From a virus: a stretch of 46,463 bases of DNA. The notes under the pieces were generated by a model that saw nothing but the letters and a program-made list of their open reading frames with translations, did not search any database and was not told the origin of the DNA. Made by a program: the position numbers and the translations under genes. Position 1 is the first letter of the stretch. Every line of letters begins with the position of its first letter. Below are positions 1 through 23,474 of this stretch, piece after piece. The DNA lies in the IMG/VR virus record IMGVR_UViG_3300009009_000020, positions 1 to 46,463 of that record. One strand, given 5' to 3'.

Positions 1-3000
1 GATCCACCAGATCTCTTTAATGTTCCTTCTACGTTTGATCCACCATTACCACTTGATGCTATAACAAATTGATTTGTTAAATTAGGAATTTTAAATGTAG
101 TTGTTGCTCCAGGTAAATCAGTAACTCCTGCCTGATATGCAGTTCCACCATAAGTATTTGAAATAACAGCGTGTAGTGTTCTGTAAGTATAGGTATTTAA
201 ATCTTGTCCATTGCATATACCCCACTGAGTAATACCAGGAGAAGATGGTAAATTATCAGTTGTTCCCGCCCATATTACAATACTTCCAATTGGAGTAACA
301 TTTGGAACAGCAAGATAATTTGCAGTTAAAGTTCCACTATCTGGTCCAGGTACGACACCATTTCCAGTAAGTGTTAAGTTACCAGCAAGAGTTGTTGTGG
401 TGTTAATTGCAACATTGCTACCAACTACAGAATTTAAAACTAAATTTCCAGAAGATGTATCAATTGTCTGATCATTTGTGACTCCTATTCTAATATTACC
501 GACATAAGCATCACTAAATGGTAAAGAGGATGTTCCAATATATGCTCCTTTTGAATCGTCTGGAACAATTCCAACTCCAGCAGTAATTAAGTTATTGCCA
601 GTGATGTTACCGTTTACGTTTAGATTTCTATTGATGCCGACTCCACCAGAAACAACAATTGCACCAGTAGCAGATGATGTAGATTGTGTTTTATTAGTAA
701 CTCTTAATCTTCCGGAAATAGTCAGATCAGTATTAAAAGTAACCGCACCATTAAAGGTAACTGGTCCATCAAATTGAGATAAAATAGTTCCAGAGTTTCC
801 ACCTTCCACAAGAAGTCTCTCTTTTACAATAACTTCATCATAAACAACACTCAATCTTGAAGGATCTTGCCCAGTGATTGTTGGAACGGGAATATCAAAT
901 GTTGTTTGTTGACCACTAGATGCCGAATATTTTGTATTACCAATAAAGAAATCACCATCACTATTCATTCCAGTGTAAATTACACTTCCACCAGAAGTTT
1001 CTTGGGATTGAGCAAGAAAATCTTCTCTTTCAGTTATGGTTTTAACTTGTAACTGTGGTAAACCTGTTGAGTAGTTACCTGGTCCATATCCAAGGTATTC
1101 AAATGTATGTCCAGAAGCACGAAGAATAGATGGTCTGCGGAACTCAATAGGAATTAATTTAATTTTACGAATTAAAGAACCATTAGAATGATTTTCTTTG
1201 AGAGTTCCCATAGCACCACGAATTACCGTGATTTGATTATTACTTGCACCACTTAATGTGCTGGAAGTAATTCTCATAATTTCATTATCAATTTGAATAT
1301 AAGATCCGAGTGGGAATCTTCTTGTTGTAGCAATACCAACATTAATCAATCTGACAGGAAATGATGCATCACTTTCAATATTTGCTAGCAATTCCATGCA
1401 CTCATTGTCATAGAAGAAAGATCCTCTAGTTGCAAGGTTTTCTCCAGTATCATCCGCAATACCTTCGTTTGAAGATAATGAATGTTTCAAAATACGTCTT
1501 GGAGTTAATCCAAATCCAGATGTCTTAGCAGTAAATTGAGTAATAGAAGGTGCAGCTATAACAAGGTAGTCGCCTAAATTATTATTGCTAGAATCAATAA
1601 CTCTAAATTGATTTCCAGAAATTAAACCATGTCTTGAAAAACAATTGAATGTTGTTATACCAGATGTAGAGTCATGTGATATTGAAGAAACATCAATAGG
1701 AATATTGCTGTTAATGAAGTATTGACCAACAACAGGGACAACATCAGATGCTGTTTTTGCAATGGAAATTTGATTTTTTGCAGGTAAACTTGTAATTCTA
1801 TAAAATCCGTCAGTAACTGTTCCGATACCTGTTAGTTGTATGGTATTTCCAACTGCAGTAGAAATACCAGATGTTGCTATGGTATATGATGCACTTGGAG
1901 CACCACCAATAACTCCACTATCAAAGAATAAAGTCTCTGCATTATTATATCCAGATCCACCAGAAATAATTTCTGCAGAAGTTACATTTCCTCCAGCACC
2001 AACAACTACTCTTGCTGTGGCACCATCCCAAGTTGTTAAGAAACTATCATTATACAATTTGACGTTAAAATATGTTCCGGCAGTATGACCAGAACCACCA
2101 CTTAATGTTCCGGTAACAACACCACCCAAACCATGTTCCCTATCAAATGTAATTGTTGCTGATGTTGCACTTGATGTAACATTAGTTACTTGAGGAGAAA
2201 TTCCAAATCCAGTGTAAAATTTATCAATAGTTTCTCTTGTTATACTCTTTTTAAGGTCATTTGTTACAACATCACCTAATGGACTTCTTTTTGCAAAAGA
2301 TTCCGCTGCCGGTGGATTATCATTTTTATTATCTCTATCAAGTTGAGGATACAAATCAACAATGTTTTGGGTATATGCAAGATCTGTAAATTCACTTTCA
2401 ATTTTGTTAGAGGCATTAATTAAATACAGATAATAAACTCCATCCTGAACATTATAAATGTACGGATTTATAACTTCTTTTCTGTATACAATAAAGTTTT
2501 TCTTATTATCATTTCTTTCAAATCTAGGAAGAGTAACATCTCTTACATTGGTGTTGCTTGTAAAAGTTCCTGGAGAATGAAGTACACCATAAATATCGGT
2601 TGCACTATATGTAAATGTTTTGTCATCTACTATGGTATCGACAAGAAAAACACCATTGTATCCACGATTTAATACTGCGGCAGTATTTGTGGAACTCTTT
2701 ACATTTTTGACAATTACTTGATCTCCATATTTTAAGTTATGAGGAAGATCAGATGTTACTGTAATTATCTTATTAATACTATCATAAGTACATTGGTTAA
2801 TAAATCTTGGATTTCTATTAAAAAGATAATCCAAAGAAGTAATGGAACTAAGAGTAAAGTCTGAGGTGCTTCTGGCACCAGTAGTGCTTGATTCTTGAAT
2901 AATAAATCCATCACTTGGATCTCTTGCATTATCAAGCTCTTTGGGAATAACTACACGAACTTTATAAATCTTTTCATCTAAACTTCTATTATCTTCATAT

Positions 3001-6131: not shown

Positions 6132-6321
6132 AGATGGCGAGGTCTGCGTATTTAATCTGTTCTTGATCAAGATTAGCGGTTACAACTTCAAGTACGTTCA
6201 TAAATTCTTGAATTGTATCACATTCAACCAGGCGTTCACCACCTTGATCACTCAAAAGAAGAAAAGTTCGGGCACAAACATCAATTACGATGCCCTGTAC
6301 ACATTCTTGCGTGGAACTCAT
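6112..6321 (-). CDS. Hypothetical protein, 69 aa
   Basis: Starts at ATG 6321 (MSSTQECVQG). The earlier in-frame start at 6345 is too close to the expected transcription start (about 6341) to be used. A beta-rich first half (IVIDVCARTFLLLSDQ) is followed by a helical segment ending in LAIYENTND. No family recognised. It overlaps the Phd-like gene by 20 nt and is first behind the promoter at 6348-6376, so the two form a small early operon. It sits where a toxin or antitoxin partner might be, but nothing in it resembles RelE, Doc or other toxins I know. Confidence 0.65.
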   Translation of the reverse strand: MSSTQECVQGIVIDVCARTFLLLSDQGGERLVECDTIQEFMNVLEVVTANLDQEQIKYADLAIYENTND

Positions 6322-7523: not shown

Positions 7524-10500
7524 CTACTGGAACTTAATGCAGGGTAAAAGTGCAATATTATGTGGTCTGGATTCATTTGGTGGATCAGTCGTGGTTGCTG
7601 GATCTTGAGATATTGTAACTGTATTTGATGATGGATTTTGCGTAACTCCACTAATCGGTGCAGTACCAGAAGAACCACTAATTGGATGACCATGTGGATG
7701 ACTATGTGATGCAGCATCGGGATTAACAGTAATTGGATGAGTGTGGGCACCATTATTGCTTGTTCTGGCATTACTCTGCCCTCTGTTACTTCTGCCCCCA
7801 CCAGGTTGAGTTGGACCATCATTAGTATTAGTTCTATCATAACTATGATCATGTCCCCCATTACTATTAGCAGTTCCTCCATGTCCATGAGGTGCGCTTC
7901 CAGGAGCAGTTTGAGAAGCAGCAGCATAATTGCCAACAGGATGACTATGAGTTCCAGCATTAAATGGGTGACTATGATTACTAACAGAACTTCCTGGATG
8001 TGAATGGGATAAGTTTCTTGTTCCTTGTTGAGATCCAAATACTCTTCCAGAGTTTAATCCACCAGAAGTAGTATTGTCCCAACCACGAATAAATCTTCCT
8101 CTTAGATCTGGTATACCAAATGTGGTTGAACCATCTCCTGCACCAAAAGTAGTTCCAATTACATTAAATAATAAAGCATAAATTGTTCTACTAACTACAG
8201 CACCATTACAATATAGAAAATCTGTTGGTGCTGTGTTTTTCGTATACCATATAACAGTACCAATTGGTATGGGTGAAGATGCAGCACCCCCTAAACCTTG
8301 GGTTCCTTGATTACTTAAACCTTGAGTACCCTGAACACCCTGAGTACCTTGTCTACCTTGGGTTCCTTGAGTGCCTTGGTTATTGCTAAGGGGACCTTGA
8401 ATTCCTTGAGTTCCTTGAGTTCCTTGTCTTCCTTGAGTACCTTGAGTACCTTGATTATTACTAAGAGGACCTTGAGTACCTTGAGTACCTTGATTTGCTC
8501 TACCTTGAATACCTTGACGTCCTTGAGTACCTTGGAAATTGCTTAAAGTTCCTTGGGAACCTTGTCTTCCTTGAATTCCTATTGATCCTTGAGATCCCTG
8601 TCTACCAAAAATACCTTGAGATCCTTGAGTTCCTTGGTTACTTAATCCTTGAACACCTTGTCTTCCTTGAGATCCTTGAGTTCCTTGGTTGTTACTTAAA
8701 GGACCTTGAATTCCTTGAGTTCCTTGAGTTCCTTGCCTTCCTTGAGTTCCTTGAGGACCTTGAGTACCTTGCCTTCCTTGAGTTCCTTGGTTACTTAATC
8801 CTTGAACACCTTGTCTTCCTTGAGATCCTTGAGTTCCTTGATTATTACTCAGAGGACCTTGAATTCCTTGAGTACCTTGCCTCCCTTGAGATCCTTGAGT
8901 ACCTTGCCTCCCTTGAGATCCTTGAGTACCTTGATGTGCTCTACCTTGTGTTCCCTGTCTTCCTTGAGATCCTTGAAGACCTTGAGATCCTTGAGTACCT
9001 TGATGTGCTCTACCCTGAGCACCTTGAAGTCCTTGAGTACCTTGCCTTCCTTGTGTCCCCTGAAGACCTTGAGTACCTTGATGTGCTCTACCTTGAGCAC
9101 CTTGAAGTCCTTGAGTACCTTGCCTTCCTTGTGTCCCCTGAAGACCTTGAGTACCTTGATGTGCTCTACCTTGAGCACCTTGAAGTCCTTGCCTTCCTTG
9201 TGTTCCTTGAAGACCTTGTGTTCCTTGTTGTGACCTACCTTGAACACCCTGAAGTCCTTGAGTTCCCTGTCTTCCTTGAGTACCTTGAGATCCCTGAAGT
9301 CCTTGTGTTCCTTGTCTTCCTTGAGTACCTTGAGATCCTTGTCTTCCTTGAAGACCTTGTGTTCCTTGTGTACCTTGATCACCTTGAGTACCTTGCGCAC
9401 CTTGATCTCCCTGAGTACCTTGAGATCCCTGAAGTCCTTGAGTACCCTGAGTCCCTTGGCCACCTTGTGTACCTTGTCTTCCTTGTGTTCCCTGCGTACC
9501 TTGTCTTCCTTGTGTTCCTTGAGTACCTTGGAGTCCTTGTGTACCTTGAAGTCCTTGAGTACCTTGGGTTCCTTGATTACCTTGAAGTCCTTGAGATCCT
9601 TGGAATCCTTGAGTTCCCTGAGATCCTTGTCTTCCCTGAGTACCTTGAGATCCCTGAAGTCCTTGAGTGCCTTGAAATCCTTGAGTTCCTTGAGTGCCTT
9701 GAGTTCCTTGATTACCCTGAAGACCTTGAGATCCTTGAGTGCCTTGAGATCCTTGATTACCTAATCCTTGAGTTCCTTGAAGACCTTGTGATCCTTGTCT
9801 ACCTTGAAGTCCTTGAGTTCCTTGAGTTCCTTGCCTTCCCTGAGTTCCCTGAGTTCCCTGAGTACCTTGTGTTCCTTGTCTACCTTGTAAACCTTGAGTA
9901 CCCTGAGTACCCTGATCACCTTGAGTACCTTGCCTACCTTGTGTTCCTTGTCTACCTTGTAAACCTTGAGTACCCTGAGTACCCTGATCACCTTGAGTAC
10001 CTTGAATACCCTGATCACCTTGAGCACCCTGAGTACCCTGATCACCTTGAGTACCCTGAGTACCCTGATCACCTTGAGTACCTTGTGTGCCTTGATCACC
10101 TTGTACTCCCTGATCTCCTTGAAGTCCGACAGAACCAGAAAATCCCTGAGTACCTTGAGTACCTTGAGTTCCTTGTGTACCTTGAGTTCCTTGCCTTCCT
10201 TGAAGTCCTTGAGTTCCTTGAGTTCCTTGAGTAGATTGAGATCCTTGAAGACCTAATCTACCTTGAGTCCCTTGCCTTCCTTGAAGTCCTTGAGTTCCTT
10301 GGGTGCCTTGGGTGCCTTGGGTGCCTTGAGTAGATTGAGCTCCTTGATTTCCAAGACCTTGAACTCCTTGAGTACCCTGAGTACCCTGATCACCTTGCAC
10401 TCCTTGTGTACCCTGATCACCTTGAGTACCTTGAGTTCCCTGATCACCTTGAGTACCTTGAGTTCCCTGATCACCTTGTGTACCCTGATCACCTTGAGTA

Positions 10501-11189
10501 CCTTGAGTACCCTGATCTCCAGATAAACCTTGAGTACCCTGAGTACCCTGATCACCCTGAGTTCCCTGATCACCTTGAGTTCCTTGAGTTCCTTGTCTAC
10601 CTTGAGTTCCTTGAGTTCCCTGAAAACCTTGAGATCCTTGAGATCCTTGAGATCCTTGTGTTCCTTGTCTTCCCTGAAGACCTTGTGTTCCTTGAGATCC
10701 TTGAGATCCTTGAGATCCTTGAAATCCTTGAGTTCCTTGAGTTCCTTGAGTTCCCTGATCACCTTGAAGACCTTGAGTTCCTTGAATTCCTTGAGCACCT
10801 ATACCTTGGGTACCTTGAGTACCTTGAGTACCCTGAAGACCTTGTGATCCTTGAGTTCCTTGATGTGCTCTTCCTTGAGCACCTTGCCTTCCTTGAGATC
10901 CTTGAAGACCTTGAGAACCTTGTGTTCCCTGAGCACTTCCAGATAAACCTTGCGTTCCTTGAGTAGATTGTGTTCCCTGAAGACCTTGAGATCCCTGAAG
11001 TCCTTGAGTACCCTGAACACCTTGATTACTTAATCCTTGAGTACCTTGAACTCCTTGAGAACCTTGACTTCCTTGAGCGCCTGGATCTGGCAATCTTACC
11101 CAAGAATTTCCATTCCATCTCCACTTACTTCCACCGTAAGCATAAACTTCATTAATAAGTGGGTTTGCCGGAAAATTAAGTATTGACAT
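7524..11189 (-). CDS. Collagen-like tail fibre with C-terminal tail-collar domain, 1221 aa
   Basis: Domain order: an N-terminal cap (residues 1-35, YAYGGSKWRWNGNSWVRL), about 930 residues of Gly-X-Gln triplets dominated by GTQ with short breaks such as LSNNQ, RAHQ and LSNQ, then a tail-collar domain (from about residue 970: PIGTVIWYTKN, FLYCNGAVVS, TFGIPDLRGRFIRGWD). The tail is rich in His, Gly and Ser (repeated SHSHP and THSHP), as in many phage receptor-binding tips where His residues bind metal. Triplets of this kind form collagen-type triple helices in phages and bacteria. The near absence of proline is unusual. A late promoter (11231-11238) precedes it. Probably a long, thin host-binding fibre. 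Confidence 0.9.
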   Translation of the reverse strand: MSILNFPANPLINEVYAYGGSKWRWNGNSWVRLPDPGAQGSQGSQGVQGTQGLSNQGVQGTQGLQGSQGLQGTQSTQGTQGLSGSAQGTQGSQGLQGSQGRQGAQGRAHQGTQGSQGLQGTQGTQGTQGIGAQGIQGTQGLQGDQGTQGTQGTQGFQGSQGSQGSQGTQGLQGRQGTQGSQGSQGSQGFQGTQGTQGRQGTQGTQGDQGTQGDQGTQGTQGLSGDQGTQGTQGDQGTQGDQGTQGTQGDQGTQGTQGDQGTQGVQGDQGTQGTQGVQGLGNQGAQSTQGTQGTQGTQGTQGLQGRQGTQGRLGLQGSQSTQGTQGTQGLQGRQGTQGTQGTQGTQGTQGFSGSVGLQGDQGVQGDQGTQGTQGDQGTQGTQGDQGTQGAQGDQGIQGTQGDQGTQGTQGLQGRQGTQGRQGTQGDQGTQGTQGLQGRQGTQGTQGTQGTQGRQGTQGTQGLQGRQGSQGLQGTQGLGNQGSQGTQGSQGLQGNQGTQGTQGTQGFQGTQGLQGSQGTQGRQGSQGTQGFQGSQGLQGNQGTQGTQGLQGTQGLQGTQGTQGRQGTQGTQGRQGTQGGQGTQGTQGLQGSQGTQGDQGAQGTQGDQGTQGTQGLQGRQGSQGTQGRQGTQGLQGSQGTQGRQGTQGLQGVQGRSQQGTQGLQGTQGRQGLQGAQGRAHQGTQGLQGTQGRQGTQGLQGAQGRAHQGTQGLQGTQGRQGTQGLQGAQGRAHQGTQGSQGLQGSQGRQGTQGRAHQGTQGSQGRQGTQGSQGRQGTQGIQGPLSNNQGTQGSQGRQGVQGLSNQGTQGRQGTQGPQGTQGRQGTQGTQGIQGPLSNNQGTQGSQGRQGVQGLSNQGTQGSQGIFGRQGSQGSIGIQGRQGSQGTLSNFQGTQGRQGIQGRANQGTQGTQGPLSNNQGTQGTQGRQGTQGTQGIQGPLSNNQGTQGTQGRQGTQGVQGTQGLSNQGTQGLGGAASSPIPIGTVIWYTKNTAPTDFLYCNGAVVSRTIYALLFNVIGTTFGAGDGSTTFGIPDLRGRFIRGWDNTTSGGLNSGRVFGSQQGTRNLSHSHPGSSVSNHSHPFNAGTHSHPVGNYAAASQTAPGSAPHGHGGTANSNGGHDHSYDRTNTNDGPTQPGGGRSNRGQSNARTSNNGAHTHPITVNPDAASHSHPHGHPISGSSGTAPISGVTQNPSSNTVTISQDPATTTDPPNESRPHNIALLPCIKFQ
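8288..11083 (-). repeat. Degenerate 9-bp collagen-coding repeat array
   Basis: About 2.8 kb of minus-strand 9-bp units of the type GGT-ACT-CAA (Gly-Thr-Gln), many organised into 18-36 bp higher-order repeats. Nearly identical blocks recur around 9000-9210. The array lacks stops in several frames on both strands, so it produces long false ORFs on the plus strand. Confidence 0.9.
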
Positions 11190-11230: not shown

Positions 11231-11238
11231 TATTTATT
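11231..11238 (-). promoter_or_regulatory. T4-type late promoter AATAAATA
   Basis: AATAAATA on the minus strand, overlapping the stop of the S74 protein, 42 nt upstream of the ATG of the 1221-aa collagen-like fibre gene. It fits the late core and would give a leader of about 36 nt. Confidence 0.5.
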
Positions 11239-12400
11239 TTTCCTCAAAAATTTTTATCTTATTTTCCAAACTTTCTATTCTTTCAAAAGCTTCTTGAAGT
11301 GCTTTCCACAGAACCGGGATTAATTCTTCCTTATGTAGCAATTTAGTTCCAGAAAATTCTTTTACTGCATTAGGAAGTTTATCTTCAACATTTTGTGCCA
11401 AGAATCCAGTATGAGTTATTCCACCATCATATAATTCACTATTTAACTTCCATTCAAAATCAACAACATTAATGTGATTTAAAATATTTAATGAATTTAT
11501 CTCTGTTGTTCTAATATTATCCTTCAGATTTTCGTCAGAAGTTTGAGTTCCTGCATTCCATATAGCAGTTGCATCATCATATAAAACTAAATTCCTATCA
11601 CTTTGCCAAGCAAATCTATATTGCCTATCAGATGTGCTTCCTATTCCAGTAGGACCAAAATATAAATCAACACCTCCATCAAAACCTGGACTTAATCCTT
11701 TATAAAATGTATTAATACCTAAATGTAAAGATTTTGTTGTATCAATTAAAAGATTTCCATTACAATTAAAATCTCCATTTAAAACTAAAGATGTTTGAGA
11801 ATATCCAATAGGACCAACAGTTAAATATACATTATCATTTGTTGTACCTATTCCAACATTCCCTAAAGTATGAATTCCTGAATAAGAATAATCAACTATC
11901 CATGGATTAATTGCCGAACCTCCATTAGCATCAACCCATTGTGAAGAATCTTGATCTTGATAAAAAATTCTAAGATCCCCAACACTGCTATCCCACCAAA
12001 GATCTCCAGCAAAAGGATCAATAGGTGGATTATCTGAAATAGTAACAGTCGGGGTATCAACTGTTATTGTTGAAATAGATCCTGAAGCAGTAGCTGTAAC
12101 TCCTCTACCAACGAAATTTAATTTTGAAACACTATTCGCAGTTCCTACTAAAATACCTTCATCAAAAATACTGATGCCAGAAGTTAATTCAGAAGGAGCC
12201 GATTCTACCCAATATCTATCATAAGTAGTTCCATTTTCAACTGTAACAAGAGTAAAGTATTTGTTAGCGGCAGCAAGTGGTCTTTCTCCAGGAAACCCCA
12301 AATTAGGCTCAGCTTCATCTAAACTTAAGTAAAGGTGTCTATCACTACTTAATCCAGAATATTCTTTTAAATTTTCTCTGCCGCTTAAAAATCTTGCCAT
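11234..12400 (-). CDS. Tail fibre/spike protein with lectin motif and C-terminal S74 intramolecular chaperone, 388 aa
   Basis: The last 102 residues are a Peptidase_S74 (endosialidase-type) chaperone domain: SDENLK at 288-293, DFEWK, THTGFLAQNVEDKLP, then a terminal coiled coil with ALQEAFERIESLENKI. Family members trimerise the fibre and cut themselves just before the Ser of this motif, so cleavage before Ser288 is expected. Directly upstream, QSDRNLVLY (266-274) is an exact match to the QxDxNxVxY mannose-binding signature of bulb-type lectins, followed by AIWNAGT. The N-terminal half is beta-rich with a short WWDSSVGDLRIFY repeat typical of cyanophage fibres. It is transcribed with the two genes upstream and lies between the two collagen-like genes. 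Likely a host-surface-binding fibre. Confidence 0.85.
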   Translation of the reverse strand: MARFLSGRENLKEYSGLSSDRHLYLSLDEAEPNLGFPGERPLAAANKYFTLVTVENGTTYDRYWVESAPSELTSGISIFDEGILVGTANSVSKLNFVGRGVTATASGSISTITVDTPTVTISDNPPIDPFAGDLWWDSSVGDLRIFYQDQDSSQWVDANGGSAINPWIVDYSYSGIHTLGNVGIGTTNDNVYLTVGPIGYSQTSLVLNGDFNCNGNLLIDTTKSLHLGINTFYKGLSPGFDGGVDLYFGPTGIGSTSDRQYRFAWQSDRNLVLYDDATAIWNAGTQTSDENLKDNIRTTEINSLNILNHINVVDFEWKLNSELYDGGITHTGFLAQNVEDKLPNAVKEFSGTKLLHKEELIPVLWKALQEAFERIESLENKIKIFEEK

Positions 12401-12762: not shown

Positions 12763-15700
12763 TTACTTACCTAATGCTATAATTAAAGGAGTTACTGTAT
12801 TTAACAGACTTTGACTAAATGCTCTTCCGGTGATTGTTCCGGTTAATTGATTGATTACAACATCATCTCCAATTTGGAAGTTTCCTGCTTGGTTTGTACT
12901 GGTATAAACAACCTGACCACCATTACGTTTATCAACTTCATTTGCCTGAATTGAAACTCCACCTAAAGCTGGTTTTGCTGTAAAGATATTTGTTCCAGCT
13001 CCAACCCATTCCAATGAAATTGATGTTGCAATTTGTAAACTAATTCTGGAGAAATAAACTGTCGTTCCAGTACCAATATTATTATTTAGATTTTGTGTTA
13101 GGATAATTGTAGAAATTCCATTTTCTGGCAACGATGCACTTTCAATGCCATAGTATATTGGGTACATGACTGGTGCTGCAGATGCACCAGAACCTCCACC
13201 TCCAGTAATTTGTATGTTAGGAGGGTCTTCATATTGAGTTCCACTACTAATAACATCAATAGAAACTATTTTACCATTTTCAATATTTGGAGATCCTTCT
13301 GCCCTAATTCCATTTGGTCCACTTGGGAAGTCAAATGTAATTACGGGTGGATTACTTTGAGAATATCCACTTCCACCATCTAATATTTTGATAGTATCAA
13401 CAAAATAATACAATCTATCAAAATAAATTGCCTGTCCATCATAAGGTCTATAATCACCAACACCAGAAACAGTAATAATTGATGTTTCTATTTCGGCATC
13501 AGTTACAACTTCTCCAGTATACCTATAGATTGACTTGGACGTATTATCCCCAACACCATCAGAAACTAGACCATAATTACCAAATGATGCGTTAGAGTTT
13601 GTAATATCACACTGACCACCCGATTTTGTAAATATTCCAATATCATCACAGATTGTGAAAATAGAAACTAATTGTGAATATGCACCATTTGTAATAGAAA
13701 CTCCAATACCACCTTGATTATATTGCGTATAAGAGTCAACACTCATTGTACCAGTTACACCAATATCATCCTGATCTCCTGGTTCTGCATTAAATCCATC
13801 AACCTTCATTCCAATACTATCCCCAATGAAGTTTGTAGCATTCCTAATGTAGGGCCCCTGAGTAATTGGTCCCACACCTCTTGAATATGGGGGAAGAACT
13901 ACACCACCAGTAATATAATAATGTGGTATGGTCGATTTTCCAACATTTACAACAAAAGTATCTCCACTGTCAGAAACTGATAAAACCTCAAAATCATATC
14001 CTCTATTTCCTGATGGGAATAATGTTGTTGTTCCTGCACCACTAAGACATGCAAATTCTAAGTTCCTTAGAGTTACAAAGTCTCCTTTTCTTACTGAAGA
14101 ACCTGGGGAAACAATCGTTGTTATTCCAGTTGAATTATCATATTTTGCTTCGGTAACATTAATTGTCCTATCAATAACATATCCACCAGAAACATATGTG
14201 TGTGGTATGGTAGAAACTCCAGTATAAACATCAAACGAATCATCTGGATTTATTTTAGAAACATAAAATTCATATCCATAATAACCTGATGGGAATTTTT
14301 GTTGAGTTGTAGGACCTCCAGATGAACAAGAGAAAACTAAATCTCTAATTTCTATTCTGTCACCAACTTTAACTTGCAATCCGGGAGCTATTAATGTTGT
14401 TTTTCCAGAAGTCTCTTCATAAACTGCACTAGTAATACCAGTAAGAGTTTCAAATCCTTTACCACGATTTCCTGGATATGTTGTATTAAATCCAACATAT
14501 GAGAATGAAGTTGAACCAAATCCAACAACTGATGTCACAACACCTACACATGATTTCATAGCAGATGTAACATCAACACAAGAATTGATTACATTATTAT
14601 ATCCAGTTTCTGGATCTATCTGAATAGAAAGATCTTTAACCTGAGTGACACTATTTTGGAAATTTGTATACTTTTGAATAGTTCCTCCAGAAACATATGT
14701 GTGAGGAAGAACTGTTTTTCCAGCAACGAATTCAAATGTATTTGGTCCAACTACAGATTTGACTGGGAATATGTAATTAAATGTTCCATCTGGATAAGTT
14801 GTAGTTGTATAGTTTGCAGTTAGCGATCCTCCAGTTACATAATCATGATCTAAAGTTGAAGAACCAACATTTAACACAACTTTATTTGAAGTATAAAGTG
14901 CTGGATAAGAATTTAAGTTTCCATCAGAAACCACAGATGTAAGTATTGCAATTAAATTATCAATATTTGATTGGACATCCGCACAGGAACTCGGATCAGT
15001 ATTAAAACCTGTAACTGGATCTGCAATAATTGATAAATCTTTAACATTTAATTGATTTGTAATTGCCTTCTTGGCATAATCACGAACTACATTAAATGCA
15101 GTTATACTCTCTGCCTCTTCACCAACTAAACCATTGGAGATTGGATCTCCATTTTTATTAAAATATGCTCTAATTGCTTCACGAATGTACTTATTAGTTC
15201 CATATTTTATATCTTTTATCAAAGCATCAACAATATAACCAATATCTCTACGACACTTATTCTCACCAGTTACAAAGATTCCAGAATTAATTCTGATAGT
15301 ATTAAGAGAAGAAAGTGATCCTGCAGAAACAACAGACGTGATAATTGATGTTAAAGTATCTAATGTATTTTGAACATTTGCGCAGGAGGATGGTGAAGTG
15401 TTAATTCCAGTTGCAGGATCTGCAGTAATTGTTAAGTCCTTGACAGTAAGTTGATTTGTAATTGCCTGCTTCATTAAGTTTCTTGCCTGATTAAAAGCAT
15501 AAACAGATTCTGTTTCTTCACCAACCAATCCATTAGAAATTGGTGCTCCATTATTAAAGTATTGTTTTACAAATTCAATAGAATATGAATTTCCTCCAGT
15601 AAAGATATCTATAGAAACTGCATCAATAAAGTATCCAATATCTCTCTTACACTTTGTTTGAGTTGTAGAAATTCCTGGATATGCAACAACCGTAGCATTC

Positions 15701-18700
15701 CAAGAACTATCAACAATTTCAGTTCTATTTTGCTGGATCAATCTATAAGAATCTTTAAATCTTGAGAATCTTGTAGTTTGAACATCATTCGGGAAGTAAA
15801 AATCCGAATGACCAATCGCAATTGCTGCAAGAGATTTGTCAATAATTTCAATTCTATTCTTTTGAATTAAATTAGCAGCATCTATATAACGATTATCTGC
15901 GGTTGCAATTACCTTAAATTCATATCCAAGATTTCCTGATGGATAATATGCTGTAGATGGACCACCACCACTATTACATTCCCAAACAAGATTTTCTATT
16001 TTAACTTTTTTACCTGGCTCAATATATAAATGTGCTCCAGTAGTTGTTCCCAACCCAACGGCGGTAATGGTTGTAATTCCACTTATACGATCATAAGATG
16101 CAGTTGAAATTCCAAACACGGGTGTATAAAGTTTGGATATATTACCACCATATTGGTAAGAATGATCTAAAGTAGATTTTCCCACATTAACAACAAATGT
16201 TTTAGAATCAAGAACATCCTGAACTGTAAATTCATATCCAAGATTCCCCGAAGGATATGATGCCGTTGAAGGACCACCTCCACTATCACATTCAAATATA
16301 AGATTTTCTATTTTTACTCTATCTCCGGATATAATCTTTAACGATGTTGAAGTTTCTATTGTTGAAATTCCAGTCAATCTGTCATAAGAGGCAGTTACGA
16401 CACCAACGGGGAAACCAGCAGATCCTGAATCGCATGAATAAGTTAATCCCTGAACTTTAACAGGATCATTTCTAGTTAAACCATGATTAACTGCAGTAAC
16501 TGTAGTAATTCCTGTTATACCATCATAAATCGCATTTGTTACTACAGTTCCTAGACCAACTGGATATCCACCCCATGAACAATTATTAATAACTGCTCTT
16601 GCAACATTAAATGAATAATCTAGAGTTGATATAGTTTGATTAACTTCTCCTGGATTTTTTAGAATTCCAGTTTTTAAATTCCAATTATCATCATAGTATG
16701 CCTTACCTGCATCAACACATCTAGAATTTCCACCTCTTGTAATATCATGAATAATACATTTCCAAATATCCTTAATATCATCCGCACAGTCATTACTTTC
16801 TAATGTCACTCCAAATCTAATTTGTGGGGCATTTGATGTTGTTCCAGCACCAATCATATTAGTAACAATTCCAACTAATTGTCGAACTGTAGTTCCAACA
16901 CCAACACACCCACCTTCAACAGCAATAACTGATAGGTTTTTAATTTGCGTTACACTATTTCCAACTCCTTGATAAGAAATGGGAGGAGTTAAATTGTTAA
17001 TCACATGAGTTGCAATTCCTGCAGCATAATCTAATGCAGCAACAGTTGCTTGAGAAACACCAACACCAGTAATATGGATTAATCCACCAGAAGTATTAAA
17101 ATATGAATAACCCGCACCAATTGATTTGCGATTACTGTTTGCTTTTAGGTCATAAGATACTGCCTGCATAATGCTGACAACGTCTTCTTTGCAATTAATA
17201 TAACTGCTTATTCCAAGTGTGAAATTATATCCGGATGGCGATGTTAGAAAACCAACTGCCTCGGCGGCAATATAATCTAAATTAGAATCAATTAATTTTG
17301 CAGCATCCTGCTCTCTGTGATTTCCCGCAAACCCACTAAAACCACTTGTAAGGAATCCAACAGATTCTTTTGCAATATAATCTAGATTAAAACGAATCAT
17401 TCTAGCAGCATCAAAGAATCTATCCGTTGTTACTCCTAGTAAAGGTTGAAGAGCAATTATTGCAGCACCATTTGTAGAATTCTGTCCTATAAAACTTACA
17501 TCAGTTACATGGCATCCATTATTAACATAAAATAAGTCTCTGTCAGGGAATTTTGGAGTAACTACACAATTGCGAAGTTCCGTACCCTCAACAGATACTG
17601 TTTTTGCCAAGATAATTGGATTTTCTTCAACATAAACTCCAGGAAATACTTTTATAGTGTCTCCAGTAAGTGCTACTGATGCGGCAGATTTAATAGTTCT
17701 CTTGGGATAGTTTTCTGATAAACCTGTATTATTATCATCACCATTTTGAGATACGTAAATCGTTTTTCCAATAGGTCTATATGCGTCAATTTTTACTACA
17801 CCTTTTCCTGGATCTTGAGTTGCAGTTAAATCAATACCTATACCAGGAACAAGTTGTGTAACAATGCCTACAAGATTTACACCTCCACCATAAAATTCAG
17901 TTGCTCTTGCTGTTCCTCTTACAGTTAAATTATCAGTTATTACATTTGTATTGATTCCGATAGATCCTGTTCCTGGAATATAAGAAAGTTTTTCTGAAGA
18001 TGCAAAAACAGTTGATAGAGGAGTTATCGTTGGATCTTCAATAAAACTAACATATCTTGTAAGATTTGTTGTATTGTCATCAACTACATCAAATATTGCA
18101 GATCCTTGTAATCCTTGTAATCCTTGTAATCCCTGCAATCCTTGGGCACCTTGATTTCCTTGTGTACCCTGAGTGCCCTGATCACCTTGAGTACCCTGAA
18201 CGCCCTGATCACCTTGAGTTCCTTGAGTTCCTTGATTTCCCTGCGATCCTTGGGTTCCCTGTTCACCCTGAGTACCCTGATCACCTTGTGTACCTTGAGT
18301 TCCTTGCCTCCCTTGAGTTCCTTGAGTTCCTTGAGAACCTTGAGTACCTTGTCTACCTTGAGTACCCTGAGTTCCTTGAGTTCCTTGCCTCCCCTGAGTA
18401 CCTTGAGTACCTTGAGTACCCTGAGTGCCTTGTCTTCCTTGGGTGCCTTGGGTGCCTTGAGTACTTTGATTTCCTTGTGTTCCCTGTTTTCCTTGGGTTC
18501 CTTGAGATCCCTGAGTACCTTGAGATCCCTGAGTACCTTGATCACCTTGAAGACCCTGAACACCTTGAGTACCCTGATCACCTTGAGTACCCTGCGCTCC
18601 TTGATCACCTTGAGTACCTTGAGTGCCCTGATCACCTTGAGTACCTTGAGTGCCCTGATCACCTTGAGTACCCTGAACGCCCTGATCACCTTGAGTACCT

Positions 18701-20823
18701 TGAGTACCCTGATCACCTTGAGTACCCTGAAGTCCTTGAGTTCCTTGTCTACCTTGTAAACCTTGGGTTCCTTGAGTTCCTTGAGTTCCTTGAGAACCTT
18801 GAGTTCCTTGCTTTCCCTGAGTTCCCTGAGATCCTTGTCTTCCCTGAGTTCCCTGAGTTCCTTGAGTTCCTTGAGAACCTTGAACACCTTGCTCCCCCTG
18901 AGTGCCCTGAGTTCCTTGAGCACCCTGATCACCCTGAGTACCCTGAGTACCTTGGTCACCTTGAGTTCCTTGGATTCCCTGAGTACCTTGGTCACCTTGA
19001 AGACCCTGGGTTCCTTGTGTGCCCTGATCACCTTGTGTACCCTGATCACCTTGAGTACCTTGAGTGCCCTGATCACCTTGAGTACCTTGAGTACCTTGTG
19101 TACCCTGAGTACCTTGAGAACCTTGAGAACCTTGAATTCCTTGATCACCCTGAAGACCCTGGGTTCCTTGTGTGCCCTGATCACCTTGTGTTCCCTGAAC
19201 ACCTTGGTCACCTTGAAGACCCTGAGTACCCTGATCACCCTGAGTACCCTGAGTACCCTGAGTACCTTGATAACCTTGGGTTCCTTGAGTGCCTTGGGTT
19301 CCTTGAGTACCCTGATCACCTTGAGTACCTTGAGTACCCTGATCACCTTGAGTACCTTGAGTACCCTGATCACCTTGAGTACCCTGGGTTCCTTGAGTTC
19401 CCTGATCACCTTGAGTTCCCTGAGTTCCCTGAGTACCTTGAAGACCTTGAGTTCCTTGAGTTCCCTGCCTACCTTGAGTACCTTGAGTACCTTGAGTACC
19501 CTGATCACCTTGAGTACCTTGAGTACCCTGATCACCTTGAGTACCTTGAGTACCCTGATCACCTTGGGTACCCTGATAACCTTGAGTACCTTGAGTACCT
19601 TGAGTACCTTGTGTGCCCTGATCACCTTGAGTACCTTGAGTGCCCTGATCACCTTGAGTACCTTGAGTGCCCTGATCACCTTGAGTACCTTGAGTGCCCT
19701 GATCACCTTGAGTACCTTGAGTTCCCTGATCTCCCTGAGTACCCTGATCACCTTGAAGACCTTGGGTACCTTGAATACCCTGATCACCTTGAGTACCTTG
19801 AGTACCCTGATCACCTTGAGTACCTTGAGTACCCTGATCACCTTGAGTACCTTGAGTACCCTGATCACCTTGAGTTCCCTGAAGACCTTGAGTACCTTGA
19901 ATACCTTGATCACCCTGTAAACCTTGAGTGCCTTGTAAACCCTGAGTGCCTTGATATCCCTGAGTACCCTGAGTACCCTGAGTACCTTGATCACCTTGAG
20001 TACCCTGAGTACCTTGAGTACCCTGAGTACCTTGATCACCCTGAGTACCTTGAGTACCCTGATCACCCTGAACTCCTTGAGTACCCTGATCACCCTGAGT
20101 ACCCTGATCACCTTGAATACCCTGAAGTCCTTGAGTGCCTTGAATACCTTGATCACCCTGCAGTCCTTGAGTACCTTGATAACCTTGGGTTCCTTGAGTT
20201 CCCTGAGTACCTTGGTCTCCTTGAGTACCTTGAGTTCCTTGATAACCTTGTGTTCCTTGAGTACCTTGGGTTCCTTGGGTTCCTTGTGTACCTTGATCAC
20301 CTTGGGTACCTTGATCACCTTGAGTACCCTGATCGCCCTGAAGACCTTGAGTTCCTTGGAAGTTACTTAATGCACCCTGATTACCTTGAAGACCTTGAGT
20401 ACCCTGATCACCTTGAGTACCTTGAGTTCCTTGAAAGTTACTAAGAGATCCCTGAGTTCCCTGAAAGTTGCTTAATGCACCTTGTATTCCTTGATCACCT
20501 TGAGTACCTTGAAGTCCTTGAGTACCTTGATTGCTAAGACCTTGAAGACCTTGAATACCTACAGAACCTTGAGCAGAGGCATATAAAAGATCATTCCAGT
20601 ATGTTTCTCCATCGCCAAATTTAAATCTACGAGTATCAGATTCAATTCCAATAACACCTTTTTTTAAAAGAGGATTTTCAAGAGTCCATTCTTCTGCAGT
20701 TTTTACAACCTGTCCAATTGAACTATCAGTTTTTATGTCACCATAAACTGTAATGCCAGCATAAAATGTGGCATGATCATTATAAAACTGCTGTAAACTT
20801 GAATAATTAGTATTCCCCGACAT
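12763..20823 (-). CDS. Giant collagen-like beta-helix virion protein, 2686 aa
   Basis: Order: an N-terminal cap with a Mtd_N-like motif (residues about 58-80, ESDTRRFKFGDG..W), about 820 residues of Gly-X-Gln triplets (about 86-907), then about 1780 residues of non-collagen sequence. This opens with a beta-helix-like stretch (GKTIYVSQNGDDNNTGLS, KVFPGVYVEEN) and ends with ITNSNASFGNYGL and GGSGY beta motifs. Within it lie repeated modules: several copies of a helical unit (C.RDIGY..DA...D) and at least four copies of a beta unit (KIENL.F.C.SGGGPST, YPSGN.GYEF). The protein follows the 182-aa spike-like gene by 1 nt. Probably the largest virion protein and a long baseplate-attached fibre. Which end attaches is not known. 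Confidence 0.9.
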   Translation of the reverse strand: MSGNTNYSSLQQFYNDHATFYAGITVYGDIKTDSSIGQVVKTAEEWTLENPLLKKGVIGIESDTRRFKFGDGETYWNDLLYASAQGSVGIQGLQGLSNQGTQGLQGTQGDQGIQGALSNFQGTQGSLSNFQGTQGTQGDQGTQGLQGNQGALSNFQGTQGLQGDQGTQGDQGTQGDQGTQGTQGTQGTQGTQGYQGTQGTQGDQGTQGTQGTQGYQGTQGLQGDQGIQGTQGLQGIQGDQGTQGDQGTQGVQGDQGTQGTQGDQGTQGTQGTQGTQGDQGTQGTQGTQGYQGTQGLQGTQGLQGDQGIQGTQGLQGTQGDQGTQGTQGDQGTQGTQGDQGTQGTQGDQGIQGTQGLQGDQGTQGDQGTQGTQGDQGTQGTQGDQGTQGTQGDQGTQGTQGDQGTQGTQGTQGTQGYQGTQGDQGTQGTQGDQGTQGTQGDQGTQGTQGTQGRQGTQGTQGLQGTQGTQGTQGDQGTQGTQGTQGDQGTQGTQGDQGTQGTQGDQGTQGTQGTQGTQGYQGTQGTQGTQGDQGTQGLQGDQGVQGTQGDQGTQGTQGLQGDQGIQGSQGSQGTQGTQGTQGTQGDQGTQGTQGDQGTQGDQGTQGTQGLQGDQGTQGIQGTQGDQGTQGTQGDQGAQGTQGTQGEQGVQGSQGTQGTQGTQGRQGSQGTQGKQGTQGSQGTQGTQGTQGLQGRQGTQGLQGTQGDQGTQGTQGDQGVQGTQGDQGTQGTQGDQGTQGTQGDQGAQGTQGDQGTQGVQGLQGDQGTQGSQGTQGSQGTQGKQGTQGNQSTQGTQGTQGRQGTQGTQGTQGTQGRQGTQGTQGTQGRQGTQGSQGTQGTQGRQGTQGTQGDQGTQGEQGTQGSQGNQGTQGTQGDQGVQGTQGDQGTQGTQGNQGAQGLQGLQGLQGLQGSAIFDVVDDNTTNLTRYVSFIEDPTITPLSTVFASSEKLSYIPGTGSIGINTNVITDNLTVRGTARATEFYGGGVNLVGIVTQLVPGIGIDLTATQDPGKGVVKIDAYRPIGKTIYVSQNGDDNNTGLSENYPKRTIKSAASVALTGDTIKVFPGVYVEENPIILAKTVSVEGTELRNCVVTPKFPDRDLFYVNNGCHVTDVSFIGQNSTNGAAIIALQPLLGVTTDRFFDAARMIRFNLDYIAKESVGFLTSGFSGFAGNHREQDAAKLIDSNLDYIAAEAVGFLTSPSGYNFTLGISSYINCKEDVVSIMQAVSYDLKANSNRKSIGAGYSYFNTSGGLIHITGVGVSQATVAALDYAAGIATHVINNLTPPISYQGVGNSVTQIKNLSVIAVEGGCVGVGTTVRQLVGIVTNMIGAGTTSNAPQIRFGVTLESNDCADDIKDIWKCIIHDITRGGNSRCVDAGKAYYDDNWNLKTGILKNPGEVNQTISTLDYSFNVARAVINNCSWGGYPVGLGTVVTNAIYDGITGITTVTAVNHGLTRNDPVKVQGLTYSCDSGSAGFPVGVVTASYDRLTGISTIETSTSLKIISGDRVKIENLIFECDSGGGPSTASYPSGNLGYEFTVQDVLDSKTFVVNVGKSTLDHSYQYGGNISKLYTPVFGISTASYDRISGITTITAVGLGTTTGAHLYIEPGKKVKIENLVWECNSGGGPSTAYYPSGNLGYEFKVIATADNRYIDAANLIQKNRIEIIDKSLAAIAIGHSDFYFPNDVQTTRFSRFKDSYRLIQQNRTEIVDSSWNATVVAYPGISTTQTKCKRDIGYFIDAVSIDIFTGGNSYSIEFVKQYFNNGAPISNGLVGEETESVYAFNQARNLMKQAITNQLTVKDLTITADPATGINTSPSSCANVQNTLDTLTSIITSVVSAGSLSSLNTIRINSGIFVTGENKCRRDIGYIVDALIKDIKYGTNKYIREAIRAYFNKNGDPISNGLVGEEAESITAFNVVRDYAKKAITNQLNVKDLSIIADPVTGFNTDPSSCADVQSNIDNLIAILTSVVSDGNLNSYPALYTSNKVVLNVGSSTLDHDYVTGGSLTANYTTTTYPDGTFNYIFPVKSVVGPNTFEFVAGKTVLPHTYVSGGTIQKYTNFQNSVTQVKDLSIQIDPETGYNNVINSCVDVTSAMKSCVGVVTSVVGFGSTSFSYVGFNTTYPGNRGKGFETLTGITSAVYEETSGKTTLIAPGLQVKVGDRIEIRDLVFSCSSGGPTTQQKFPSGYYGYEFYVSKINPDDSFDVYTGVSTIPHTYVSGGYVIDRTINVTEAKYDNSTGITTIVSPGSSVRKGDFVTLRNLEFACLSGAGTTTLFPSGNRGYDFEVLSVSDSGDTFVVNVGKSTIPHYYITGGVVLPPYSRGVGPITQGPYIRNATNFIGDSIGMKVDGFNAEPGDQDDIGVTGTMSVDSYTQYNQGGIGVSITNGAYSQLVSIFTICDDIGIFTKSGGQCDITNSNASFGNYGLVSDGVGDNTSKSIYRYTGEVVTDAEIETSIITVSGVGDYRPYDGQAIYFDRLYYFVDTIKILDGGSGYSQSNPPVITFDFPSGPNGIRAEGSPNIENGKIVSIDVISSGTQYEDPPNIQITGGGGSGASAAPVMYPIYYGIESASLPENGISTIILTQNLNNNIGTGTTVYFSRISLQIATSISLEWVGAGTNIFTAKPALGGVSIQANEVDKRNGGQVVYTSTNQAGNFQIGDDVVINQLTGTITGRAFSQSLLNTVTPLIIALGK
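18101..20567 (-). repeat. Collagen-coding repeat array with perfect 27-bp higher-order units
   Basis: About 2.5 kb of minus-strand 9-bp Gly-X-Gln codon units. Exact 27-bp tandem units coding GTQGTQGDQ occur in runs, for example 19620-19710 and 19790-19870. Such arrays are prone to slippage and recombination, so copy number may differ between virions. Confidence 0.9.
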
Positions 20824-21374: not shown

Positions 21375-23474
21375 TTAATTAATACAATCTATCTGCGTAA
21401 CAGGATTTATTATAAATTTACCTGTCTCATCAACTTGACTTGGGACAACCTCTAACTTTGGACTCAGAACAGCACCAAATCCAGTTTCACTAATTATAGT
21501 TATTTCTGGAATATCATCAACTGTAATAATTTTTTGAACATTTCTACTTGTTCCTATTCCAGTTTCAGGAGGTTGAATCGGAGTAACATTAGTTATTGGA
21601 TCAACTACTGTTATAATATTTATTGGAGTAACTTTAGTAATCTCACCACCAATAACTTCCAATTTATACTCATTTTCGTATTGATCAATCGCGTAATCAC
21701 CAGGAGAATAATCTTCTCCAGGATCAATGATGTCTACATCATCGACATAATATGGTTCTGTTTCTCCTATTGGATAATTCTCTCCTTCTGAAACCATATA
21801 AATTGATTCAAGTTCACCATCATCATTGATGATTGCTCTGGCAACAGCACCATATCCTTGATCACAATCATCTGATATTTCTATAAAAGGAGGAAAATCA
21901 TATTTTTTTCCCTTCTTGGTTACTTTAACACCTATAACACTTCCAGTTTTATTTTTTCCTTTTCCAACTATGTCTCCCATGATTGGAACTGCCTCTGCAC
22001 CTTTACCCCTACTACCAAATATTTTAACTTTTGGTGGACTGCAAGAAAGTGGTTCTCCAGTATAGCATTTAAATGAAGGTGATTTAGCAGAAGAAGAAAA
22101 GTTATCAAATGCAGATGCTATTTCCTTTGCCACAGTTTCTGCATCTTTTTTCTTATTACCGAATGCTGCGATTAAATCATCAGCGTTTACACTTTTCATG
22201 ATTTCTTTAAAATTTGGTCCAGGAGCATCTTTAGATCCTCTACCAATTAACCATTCATTTGCCTTAACTGAAAAATCTCTAACAAGGGGACTATTATTAA
22301 TTTTACTAACATTCGCAACAATTCCAGAAATTGATTCAACACTATTACGAAGAAAAGTCGCTGGATCAAATCCACCAACTAAAGATAAAACTTTTTGAGC
22401 ACCATCAAGAACTCCACTCAAACCAGAATCAATTTTTTTAATAATATGATTTATTAAAGATCCGCTAAATTGATTGACTGCACAACCCCTAAATTTTTTT
22501 GAATTTTTAGCAGTAGATTTTAATAAACTTGAAATTACAGATCCTAAAGAGTTAATTATATTATTTGCTAAAGATGGTAAAAGTTGTTGAATATTATTAA
22601 TAGGTCCAACCATGGCATTTTGTGCAGCAACTCCAGCCAAGTGTGCAACATTATGCTGTTTTGTTACAGCAAAAACTAAAGAATATACGAGTTGATATAA
22701 TGCTTTTAAACCTGCATTAATTACTGGTGCTAAGGCGTAATAAATTTTGGAAATCATACTTCCAACAAGACCAGTTGTAACAGATTGAATTTTATCAGTT
22801 ACAATATTGACTAATGAAGATAATTTAGATAATCCATTACTAACTGCATTTAAAAAATTAGTTACTTCAGCACCAATCTTATCAATTGTTTTTGAAGTAT
22901 TTTCTGTTGGTCCAACTATAATATCTCCAATTCCAGTAAAATATGTTCTCTCATCCTTTCCTAAACTTTTTGCTAATGGTTTAGGGACATGCCTAGGAGA
23001 TTTTTGGGAATTTGCATTTTGTTCGTTAGTTTGATCTTTTACTACATTTTTTCCATCATTCTTAATTTTATTTGTATAACCAGTAAAAGGAACAAATGGA
23101 TTCTTATAATCTTTTACTGAAACCTTAGAAGTTCTCCCAAATGCACCCATAATTACGGGAAGTTGTGCATTATCACCATCTAAGAAAAATCCAAATACAG
23201 TGTCACCAGGAGAAAGTTTTACATCAACTGCATAATTTCCTGCTCCAGTTCCAGAAGTTGGAGGTAAAAGAACCTGTGCCCAAGGTAAATCTTTATCTGG
23301 AAGATCAACAAGACTTGGTGGGTGATATCCCATTATACGAACTTTATACCTATTTCCCCAACCACCACCATTGATTTGGGTACTATGAGATTTTTCTGGA
23401 GAAATTTGCCCTATCCACCAACGAAAACCATCTCTCCCAACAAAATTACTTTTTATTAGAGATTCGTCTTGCAT
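21375..23474 (-). CDS. 5: Baseplate hub protein with gp5 N-terminal OB domain, no lysozyme domain, 699 aa
   Basis: Residues about 12-115 match the T4 gp5 OB domain: RYKVRIMGYHPPS, LPWAQVLLPPTSGTG, PGDTVFGFFLDGDNAQLPVIMGAFG. In T4 this part sits on the gp27 trimer in the hub. The T4 lysozyme domain that should follow is absent. Instead there is a long helical middle (about 185-450), an unassigned Cys-containing segment, and a beta-rich end with KYDFPPFIEI..DCDQGYGAVARAII repeats. Neighbours support a hub role: gp27-like gene upstream (5 nt gap), beta-helical gene downstream. The muramidase activity may come instead from the SleB-like domain two genes upstream. Confidence 0.85.
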   Translation of the reverse strand: MQDESLIKSNFVGRDGFRWWIGQISPEKSHSTQINGGGWGNRYKVRIMGYHPPSLVDLPDKDLPWAQVLLPPTSGTGAGNYAVDVKLSPGDTVFGFFLDGDNAQLPVIMGAFGRTSKVSVKDYKNPFVPFTGYTNKIKNDGKNVVKDQTNEQNANSQKSPRHVPKPLAKSLGKDERTYFTGIGDIIVGPTENTSKTIDKIGAEVTNFLNAVSNGLSKLSSLVNIVTDKIQSVTTGLVGSMISKIYYALAPVINAGLKALYQLVYSLVFAVTKQHNVAHLAGVAAQNAMVGPINNIQQLLPSLANNIINSLGSVISSLLKSTAKNSKKFRGCAVNQFSGSLINHIIKKIDSGLSGVLDGAQKVLSLVGGFDPATFLRNSVESISGIVANVSKINNSPLVRDFSVKANEWLIGRGSKDAPGPNFKEIMKSVNADDLIAAFGNKKKDAETVAKEIASAFDNFSSSAKSPSFKCYTGEPLSCSPPKVKIFGSRGKGAEAVPIMGDIVGKGKNKTGSVIGVKVTKKGKKYDFPPFIEISDDCDQGYGAVARAIINDDGELESIYMVSEGENYPIGETEPYYVDDVDIIDPGEDYSPGDYAIDQYENEYKLEVIGGEITKVTPINIITVVDPITNVTPIQPPETGIGTSRNVQKIITVDDIPEITIISETGFGAVLSPKLEVVPSQVDETGKFIINPVTQIDCIN

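What the first reader, a model, noticed from the sequence alone, without database searches (positions are those of the whole stretch)
12763..20823. Hypothesis: the phage glycosyltransferases decorate its Thr-rich collagen fibres
The window encodes about 1750 residues of collagen-like Gly-Thr-Gln-type triplets with almost no proline, in two fibres (7524-11189 and 12763-20823). It also carries a GT25 domain (the family of collagen galactosyltransferases), GT2, GT17 and a GT11 fucosyltransferase-like protein. Known: Thr in bacterial collagen-like spore protein BclA and in some invertebrate collagens is glycosylated, which can stabilise triple helices lacking hydroxyproline. Linking the two here is inference. 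Decorating lipopolysaccharide or capsule instead is the main alternative.
Basis: inference. Interest (0 to 1): 0.7.

Follow-up and report, generated by a model that had tools for sequence, protein, structure and literature searches.

The report
Sugar-adding genes travel with collagen fibres
A marine cyanobacteria-infecting virus carries two huge collagen-like tail fibres plus a set of sugar-adding enzymes, and across related viruses one pair of those enzymes is found where this kind of collagen is found, which suggests (but does not prove) that the virus sugar-coats its own fibres.

Summary
Two tail-fibre genes hold 541 strict Gly-X-Y triplets (48% Thr at X, 95% Gln at Y, 4 Pro, 2 Lys). I ran the proposed co-occurrence test. 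GT25 alone does not track collagen; bMT and the TPR domain do. Of 46 contigs picked by unrelated markers, 13/13 bMT-positive contigs have Gly-X-Gln collagen versus 9/33 negatives (p=5e-6), and the 'collagen only' contigs on a hub tree look like truncated pieces of lineages that have both. Among 22 complete named cyanophages, 2 have both and 20 neither. Some other phages hold a contiguous bMT-TPR-collagen cassette. So the refutation criterion was not met, and virion-directed glycosylation is my leading explanation (0.5). The specific claim (Thr as target, GT25 as collagen galactosyltransferase) is not supported: Thr content does not follow bMT, Thr sits at X rather than Y, Lys is nearly absent, and GT25 is closer by sequence to bacterial GT25. 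Host-surface modification remains the main rival. No chemistry could be tested.

The parts
7524..11189 (-). Tail fibre 1: N-terminal phage domain, Gly-X-Gln collagen array (residues ~37-959, window ~8313-11081), C-terminal tail-fibre/collar-like domain
   Evidence: translation; triplet count; PHROG tail fibre hits
12763..20823 (-). Tail fibre 2: short N-terminal domain, Gly-X-Gln collagen array (residues ~85-921, window ~18061-20571), then ~1,760 residues of non-collagen tail-fibre sequence
   Evidence: translation; triplet count; PHROG tail fibre / virion structural hits
41565..44702 (-). 1,045-aa modular glycosyltransferase: GT2 (43848-44702), GT25 (43098-43844), GT17 (42303-43064), C-terminal TPR domain (41568-42167)
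   Evidence: Pfam; AF2 mean pLDDT 78 with helical hairpins 848-1039; TPR structures among Foldseek hits; TPR is the part kept across relatives
45531..46463 (-). bMT: five-bladed beta-propeller resembling GT108/GH130 beta-mannosyltransferase/phosphorylase; 5' end lies outside the window (complete, 331 aa, in identical contig L002:589-1584)
   Evidence: AF2 pLDDT 87, pTM 0.89; Foldseek PDB top hits GH130 beta-1,2-mannan phosphorylase and Leishmania MPT-2/MPT-4; invariant GLED-R motif in 32 homologues
44734..45534 (-). GT11 fucosyltransferase-like protein
   Evidence: Pfam PF01531 E=3e-26; phrog_2644
40236..41561 (-). SAM methyltransferase (41022-41561) fused to GT2 (40239-41000)
   Evidence: Pfam; PHROGs; same order beside the TPR-GT in relatives
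3..5390 (-). Long tail-fibre gene (phrog_529, Collar domain), open at window end; part of the fibre locus
11234..12400 (-). Fibre protein with endosialidase-type chaperone (Peptidase_S74), between the two collagen fibres
21375..23474 (-). gp5-like baseplate hub / tail lysozyme, used as an unrelated marker and for the phage tree

Best explanation
The cluster is a phage protein-glycosylation module aimed at the virion's own fibres, including or chiefly the Gly-X-Gln collagen-like ones. Shown: a core pair, bMT plus a TPR domain, is kept; the TPR domain is fused to exchangeable catalytic domains (GT2, GT25, GT17, FkbM or other methyltransferases) or stands alone; the pair co-varies with Gly-X-Gln collagen in T4-like cyanophages and is contiguous with a collagen fibre gene in some other phages. 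Inferred: the TPR superhelix holds the newly made fibre (or another virion protein) near the catalytic domains, as TPRs do in O-GlcNAc transferase; the GT-A domains start and extend a glycan; bMT adds a beta-linked manno-configured sugar, GT11 a deoxyhexose, and the methyltransferase caps. The likely benefit is shielding, solubility or stability of long proline-free collagen stalks. Which residue is modified is unknown; Thr at X is possible but not favoured by the data.
For: Marker-selected contigs: 13/13 bMT+ carry Gly-X-Gln collagen vs 9/33 bMT- (p=4.9e-6; contigs of 40 kb or more: 12/12 vs 2/15, p=6e-6). Hub tree: every 'collagen only' row is a piece of 53 kb or less, most of them next to (one hub-identical with) a longer contig that has both; the neither/both split needs at least 4 changes, not one clade. 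Named complete genomes 2/2 vs 0/20 (p=0.004), while GT25 alone shows no link. 22 of 38 contigs picked only for Thr-Gln collagen carry bMT, including phages with no detectable T4-like hub. Nearest collagen ORF is closer than chance over 28 contigs (p=0.0012); contiguous bMT-TPR-collagen genes inside a virion gene block in G036/L319, the same order in G044/L324, and bMT 26 bp from a collagen ORF in G031. TPR domain is the best kept and common part. bMT fold and motif. P0003 fold hits include COLGALT1, ppGalNAc-T2 and SunS, enzymes acting on polypeptides, and TPR proteins. No hydrophobic segment typical of a membrane anchor (max 19-residue hydropathy 1.34).
Against: No direct evidence of any glycan on a fibre. 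Proximity is not significant in the marker-selected set alone (p=0.24-0.54). Thr content does not follow bMT. Gly-X-Gln collagens occur without bMT in large contigs (G038 360 kb, G051 200 kb, G047 103 kb). bMT-TPR occurs in pelagimyophage-like contigs with no collagen within 8 kb (L561-L564, L567). No late-promoter-like motif before the GT genes, though it is present before fibre genes 7524-11189 and 3-5390. Foldseek hits to COLGALT1 and similar are fold-level and also include polysaccharide synthases; the inter-domain arrangement is not reliable (pTM 0.40).
Confidence: 0.5

Rival explanations
1. The enzymes remodel the host's lipopolysaccharide or capsule during infection (blocking superinfection or freeing progeny). 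They co-occur with collagen fibres because both belong to a host-recognition region that is exchanged as a block.
For: This is the published reading of glycosyltransferases in the related pelagimyophage host-recognition cluster (PMC7029224). GT25, GT11 and GT2 Pfam families are typical of surface-polysaccharide synthesis. The GT25 profile is nearest to bacterial GT25. Related clusters include many more GTs, a sulfotransferase and nucleotide-sugar genes, and a cytidylyltransferase/mannose-6-phosphate-isomerase protein.
Against: It does not by itself explain why bMT-TPR, but not GT25, tracks this one kind of fibre; nor the small bMT-TPR-collagen cassettes in phages without the other GTs nearby. 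No membrane anchors, flippase or lipid-carrier GT seen in the cluster.
Confidence: 0.3
2. Virion-directed glycosylation, but the target is another structural protein (adhesin, capsid or neck protein) rather than the collagen stalks.
For: Thr/Ser content of the collagen does not follow bMT. In pelagimyophage-like contigs bMT-TPR sits among neck and tail genes without collagen nearby. A LamG-like adhesin fragment lies directly upstream of bMT in the identical contig L002.
Against: The correlation is with Gly-X-Gln collagen specifically.
Confidence: 0.13
3. Only linkage: the module and the collagen fibres are two hitch-hiking parts of the same hypervariable region, with no functional tie.
For: Both lie in exchangeable regions of T4-like genomes. 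Adjacency is not general.
Against: Repeated joint presence/absence on the hub tree and the same pairing in phages lacking the T4-like hub.
Confidence: 0.07

Closest known systems
Mimivirus collagen glycosyltransferases (R699, L230) acting on collagen
   Same: A virus encodes both collagen-like proteins and enzymes that glycosylate collagen; mimiviral R655 and R699 appear among fold matches of P0003 (PMC9546862)
   Different: R699 modifies galactosyl-hydroxylysine; here Lys is nearly absent, no lysyl hydroxylase is in the window, the core enzyme is a GT108/GH130-like propeller and the GTs are tethered to TPRs
Bacterial spore collagen-like protein BclA glycosylation
   Same: Collagen-like protein glycosylated by enzymes of the same organism (PMC8968730)
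   Different: Gram-positive collagen-like proteins have Thr at Y and Pro often at X; here Thr is at X, Gln at Y, almost no Pro
O-GlcNAc transferase and other TPR-tethered glycosyltransferases
   Same: TPR superhelix joined to a sugar-transfer domain (OGT from own knowledge; TPR here)
   Different: Catalytic domains are GT2/GT25/GT17 or methyltransferases, not GT41; the TPR is often C-terminal or free-standing
Leishmania GT108 mannosyltransferases / GH130 beta-mannoside phosphorylases
   Same: Five-bladed propeller fold and invariant GLED-R motif; top PDB fold matches
   Different: 10-16% identity; no Pfam, PHROG or NCBIfam family matches the phage protein; found in viral contigs and in 8 loci of metagenome bins only
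Phage collagen-like side-tail proteins (E. coli prophage EPclA)
   Same: Trimeric collagen stalks in tail fibres without hydroxyproline (PMC3368898)
   Different: EPcl collagens are Pro- and charge-rich, and recombinant protein is not glycosylated; here nearly Pro-free Gly-X-Gln

Membership tests
Collagen hydroxylysine galactosyltransferase (COLGALT, GT25) | GT25 domain with metal-binding acidic motif | tested here: met
   PF01755 above cut-off; invariant EDD
Collagen hydroxylysine galactosyltransferase (COLGALT, GT25) | Closest sequence relatives are collagen galactosyltransferases | tested here: not met
   Profile search of PDB: bacterial GT25 8xlz E=2.6e-5, mimivirus R655 E=0.007; COLGALT1 not listed up to E=1
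Collagen hydroxylysine galactosyltransferase (COLGALT, GT25) | Lys (hydroxylysine) at Y of Gly-X-Y in the substrate | tested here: not met
   2 Lys in 541 triplets, both at X
Collagen hydroxylysine galactosyltransferase (COLGALT, GT25) | Two GT-A domains in tandem, fold as COLGALT1 | tested here: inconclusive
   COLGALT1 9evj is the top Foldseek hit (E=6.6e-13, 593 columns) but TM 0.17-0.30 and other two-domain GT-A enzymes follow closely
GT108/GH130 beta-mannosyl enzymes | Five-bladed propeller fold | tested here: met
GT108/GH130 beta-mannosyl enzymes | Conserved catalytic Asp in a GxED-R motif | tested here: met
   E117, D118, R120 invariant in 32 homologues; that this Asp is the catalytic one is from my knowledge of GH130
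GT108/GH130 beta-mannosyl enzymes | Mannosyl transfer from GDP-Man or Man-1-P | not testable with these tools
   needs an enzyme assay
Virion self-glycosylation system | GT genes vary with the presence of the target protein | tested here: met
   bMT/TPR vs Gly-X-Gln collagen: 13/13 vs 9/33, 2/2 vs 0/20, hub tree
Virion self-glycosylation system | Glycan on a virion protein | not testable with these tools
   needs mass spectrometry
Host O-antigen conversion cassette (Gtr type) | Membrane flippase and lipid-carrier glucosyltransferase with transmembrane segments | tested here: not met
   No 19-residue hydropathy above 1.34 in the four cluster proteins of the window; no such Pfam hits; genome outside the window not seen

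The most novel reading that the evidence does not exclude
A phage-specific collagen-fibre glycosylation system: a new GT108/GH130-like mannosyltransferase family forms a constant pair with a TPR substrate-holder, onto which different glycosyl- and methyltransferases are swapped, so that each phage lineage writes its own glycan on otherwise similar Gly-X-Gln collagen stalks.
Probability: 0.3. Interest if true: 0.85.

Novelty: new variant of a known kind. Interest (0 to 1): 0.66.

Why it matters
If true, abundant aquatic phages build glycosylated collagen without proline hydroxylation, using a compact enzyme set not covered by current family libraries. It would explain part of why large cyanophages carry so many glycosyltransferases, give a genetic handle on phage surface glycans (adsorption, shielding), and offer new tools for glycosylating recombinant collagen. 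Two cultured phages (S-SCSM2R, DSL-LC02) carry the pair, so the idea can be tested directly.

Tried and rejected
1) GT25 as the link to collagen: rejected as a general rule; GT25 occurs in 15 of 22 named genomes, collagen in 2. 2) Thr as the selected target: Thr at X in bMT+ 0.08-0.62, bMT- 0.06-0.36, p=0.24; Gln at Y is the constant instead. 3) General adjacency of bMT and collagen: not in marker-selected contigs (p=0.54 by cluster positions, 0.24 by ORFs), only in the collagen-selected set (p=6e-4). 4) Late promoters for the GT operon: none of the NATAAATA type. 5) Sequence relatives of bMT in the PDB: none; only the fold search gave an answer. 6) Defence-system reading: no meaningful PADLOC hit. 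7) SAR11 phage origin of the window: considered because of the pelagimyophage paper, but PhoH and hub are nearest to cyanophages S-SRM01, S-T4, P-SSM2. 8) Is a collagen contig of the Rhodobacteraceae bin the same as its 91,772-base bMT contig? C108 and C86 are 69,507 and 49,473 bases, so not these two. 9) Searches for papers on phage-encoded virion glycosylation gave little in the open library.

Full report
What is there. The window is a fragment of a T4-like cyanomyophage: PhoH is 77-81% identical to phages S-SRM01, S-T4, P-SSM2 and S-SKS1, and the baseplate hub is nearest to S-SRM01. Two fibre genes at the stated coordinates carry 278 and 263 strict Gly-X-Y triplets. X is Thr in 262 of 541 (48%), Y is Gln in 515 (95%), with 4 Pro and 2 Lys. 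For comparison, a published survey gives 3.1% Thr at X and 13.0% Gln at Y for viral collagens (PMC3368898), so these arrays are extreme. They lie in a fibre locus next to the hub. About 20 kb away on the same strand is the glycosyltransferase cluster: methyltransferase-GT2 (40236-41561), GT2-GT25-GT17 (41565-44702), GT11 (44734-45534) and a gene cut by the window end (45531-46463).

The last 200 residues of the 1,045-aa protein form a TPR-like helical domain (AF2 helices 848-1039; TPR structures among fold hits; Pfam TPR models hit its homologues). The gene at 45531-46463, complete in an identical contig (L002:589-1584), has no Pfam, PHROG or NCBIfam match, but its confident model (pLDDT 87) is a five-bladed propeller whose best solved matches are GH130 beta-mannan phosphorylases and Leishmania GDP-mannose mannosyltransferases. 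The motif GLED-R is invariant in 32 homologues. I call it bMT.

Co-occurrence test. I counted Gly-X-Gln collagen with the DNA pattern for (Gly-X-Gln)4-Gly; the same pattern read backwards gave almost no matches. (a) 22 complete named T4-like cyanophages: bMT and the TPR domain occur in two, S-SCSM2R and DSL-LC02; exactly these two have the collagen (p=0.004; these two were included because they matched P0003/P0009, before their collagen count was known). In DSL-LC02 the genes lie side by side; in S-SCSM2R they are about 8 kb apart. (b) 46 viral contigs picked by PhoH or hub, blind to both traits: 13 bMT-positive, all 13 with collagen; 33 bMT-negative, 9 with collagen (p=4.9e-6; three near-identical contigs collapsed, p=2e-5). 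With contigs of 40 kb or more: 12/12 versus 2/15. (c) On a hub tree all seven 'collagen only' rows are pieces of 29-53 kb and most sit beside a longer contig with both (one with an identical hub), so they look like truncation; the 'neither' state needs at least four changes, so the joint pattern is not one clade. Negative control: stand-alone GT25 is in 15 of the 22 named genomes with no link to collagen (p=1.0).

(d) Starting from collagen instead: of 38 contigs found only by Thr-Gln patterns, 22 carry bMT, many of them without a detectable T4-like hub. In G036 (L319) and G044 (L324) the order bMT, TPR protein, collagen fibre is contiguous, with a capsid gene close by in L319. In G044 the TPR protein is 185 aa with no GT domain, so the smallest set is bMT + TPR. 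The TPR domain is the constant part, and its fusion partners change: GT2-GT25-GT17, GT2-GT25, GT25, FkbM and other methyltransferases.

What this does not show. Adjacency is not general: in the 11 marker-selected bMT contigs the distance to collagen is no shorter than chance (p=0.24-0.54), in 17 collagen-selected ones it is (p=6e-4), together p=0.0012. Collagens without bMT exist in large contigs (G038, G051, G047). A bMT-TPR pair also sits among neck and tail genes of pelagimyophage-like contigs, stray in metagenome bins, with no collagen within 8 kb and followed by a cytidylyltransferase/mannose-6-phosphate-isomerase-like protein. In 84,980 bacterial and archaeal genomes only 8 loci turned up with this search, all in metagenome bins, so the family looks viral.

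Thr and GT25. If Thr were the selected target, bMT-positive collagens should be richer in Thr. They are not (0.08-0.62 against 0.06-0.36, p=0.24). Thr here is at X, whereas Gram-positive collagen-like proteins, the group to which glycosylated BclA belongs, have Thr at Y. The GT25 domain is nearest by sequence to a bacterial GT25 enzyme (8xlz) and then mimivirus R655, with COLGALT1 not listed. By fold the best match of the whole protein is COLGALT1, followed by chondroitin/heparosan synthases, SunS, mimivirus R655 and R699, and ppGalNAc-T2. That mixture of polypeptide- and polysaccharide-acting enzymes does not decide the acceptor. Hydroxylysine, the COLGALT acceptor, cannot be present in quantity (2 Lys).

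Explanation. I think a virion-directed glycosylation module is most likely (0.5): TPR as substrate holder, bMT and GT-A domains building a lineage-specific glycan on fibres. Shown: domain content, predicted fold of bMT, co-variation, contiguity in some phages. Inferred: substrate, donor, order of steps, benefit. Host-surface remodelling, the published reading for related phages (PMC7029224), stays the main rival (0.3). A different virion target (0.13) and mere linkage (0.07) fill the rest.

Known context. A virus that glycosylates collagen is known from mimivirus (PMC9546862), and bacterial collagen-like BclA is glycosylated (PMC8968730), so the kind is known. The phage setting, the nearly proline-free Gly-X-Gln substrate, the new GT108/GH130-like family and the TPR tether would be a new variant.

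Noticed in passing
window 32631-33218 (-): Mom-family protein (PF25680, E=7e-25) next to gp32 in a cyanophage: possible adenine modification of phage DNA.
   Followed up: no
L561 10266-11024, L567 3611-4369: Cytidylyltransferase fused to a mannose-6-phosphate-isomerase-type cupin directly after bMT-TPR in pelagimyophage-like contigs; may supply the activated sugar.
   Followed up: partly
L561-L568: Phage contigs (T4-like gp15 and terminase genes seen in L561) binned into bacterial and archaeal metagenome assemblies (Rhodobacteraceae, Bacteroidetes, Woesearchaeota bins).
   Followed up: partly
window 7524-11189 and 12763-20823; many loci: Gln at Y is nearly invariant in these collagens over phages while X drifts among Thr, Leu, Ala, Ile, Asn; the reason is unknown.
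   Followed up: partly
window 8495-10234 and 18066-20444 (+): 579- and 792-aa open frames antisense to the collagen arrays, by-products of the repeat.
   Followed up: yes
L002 1-264; L003 3631-4812: A LamG-like adhesin fragment and an RCC1-repeat-like protein (by eye) lie beside the GT cluster, pointing to a second adhesin locus there.
   Followed up: no
window 5760-5909: tRNA-Met and tRNA-Ile pair 90% identical to those of cyanophage S-TIM5, beside a possible Phd-like antitoxin ORF (5949-6170).
   Followed up: no
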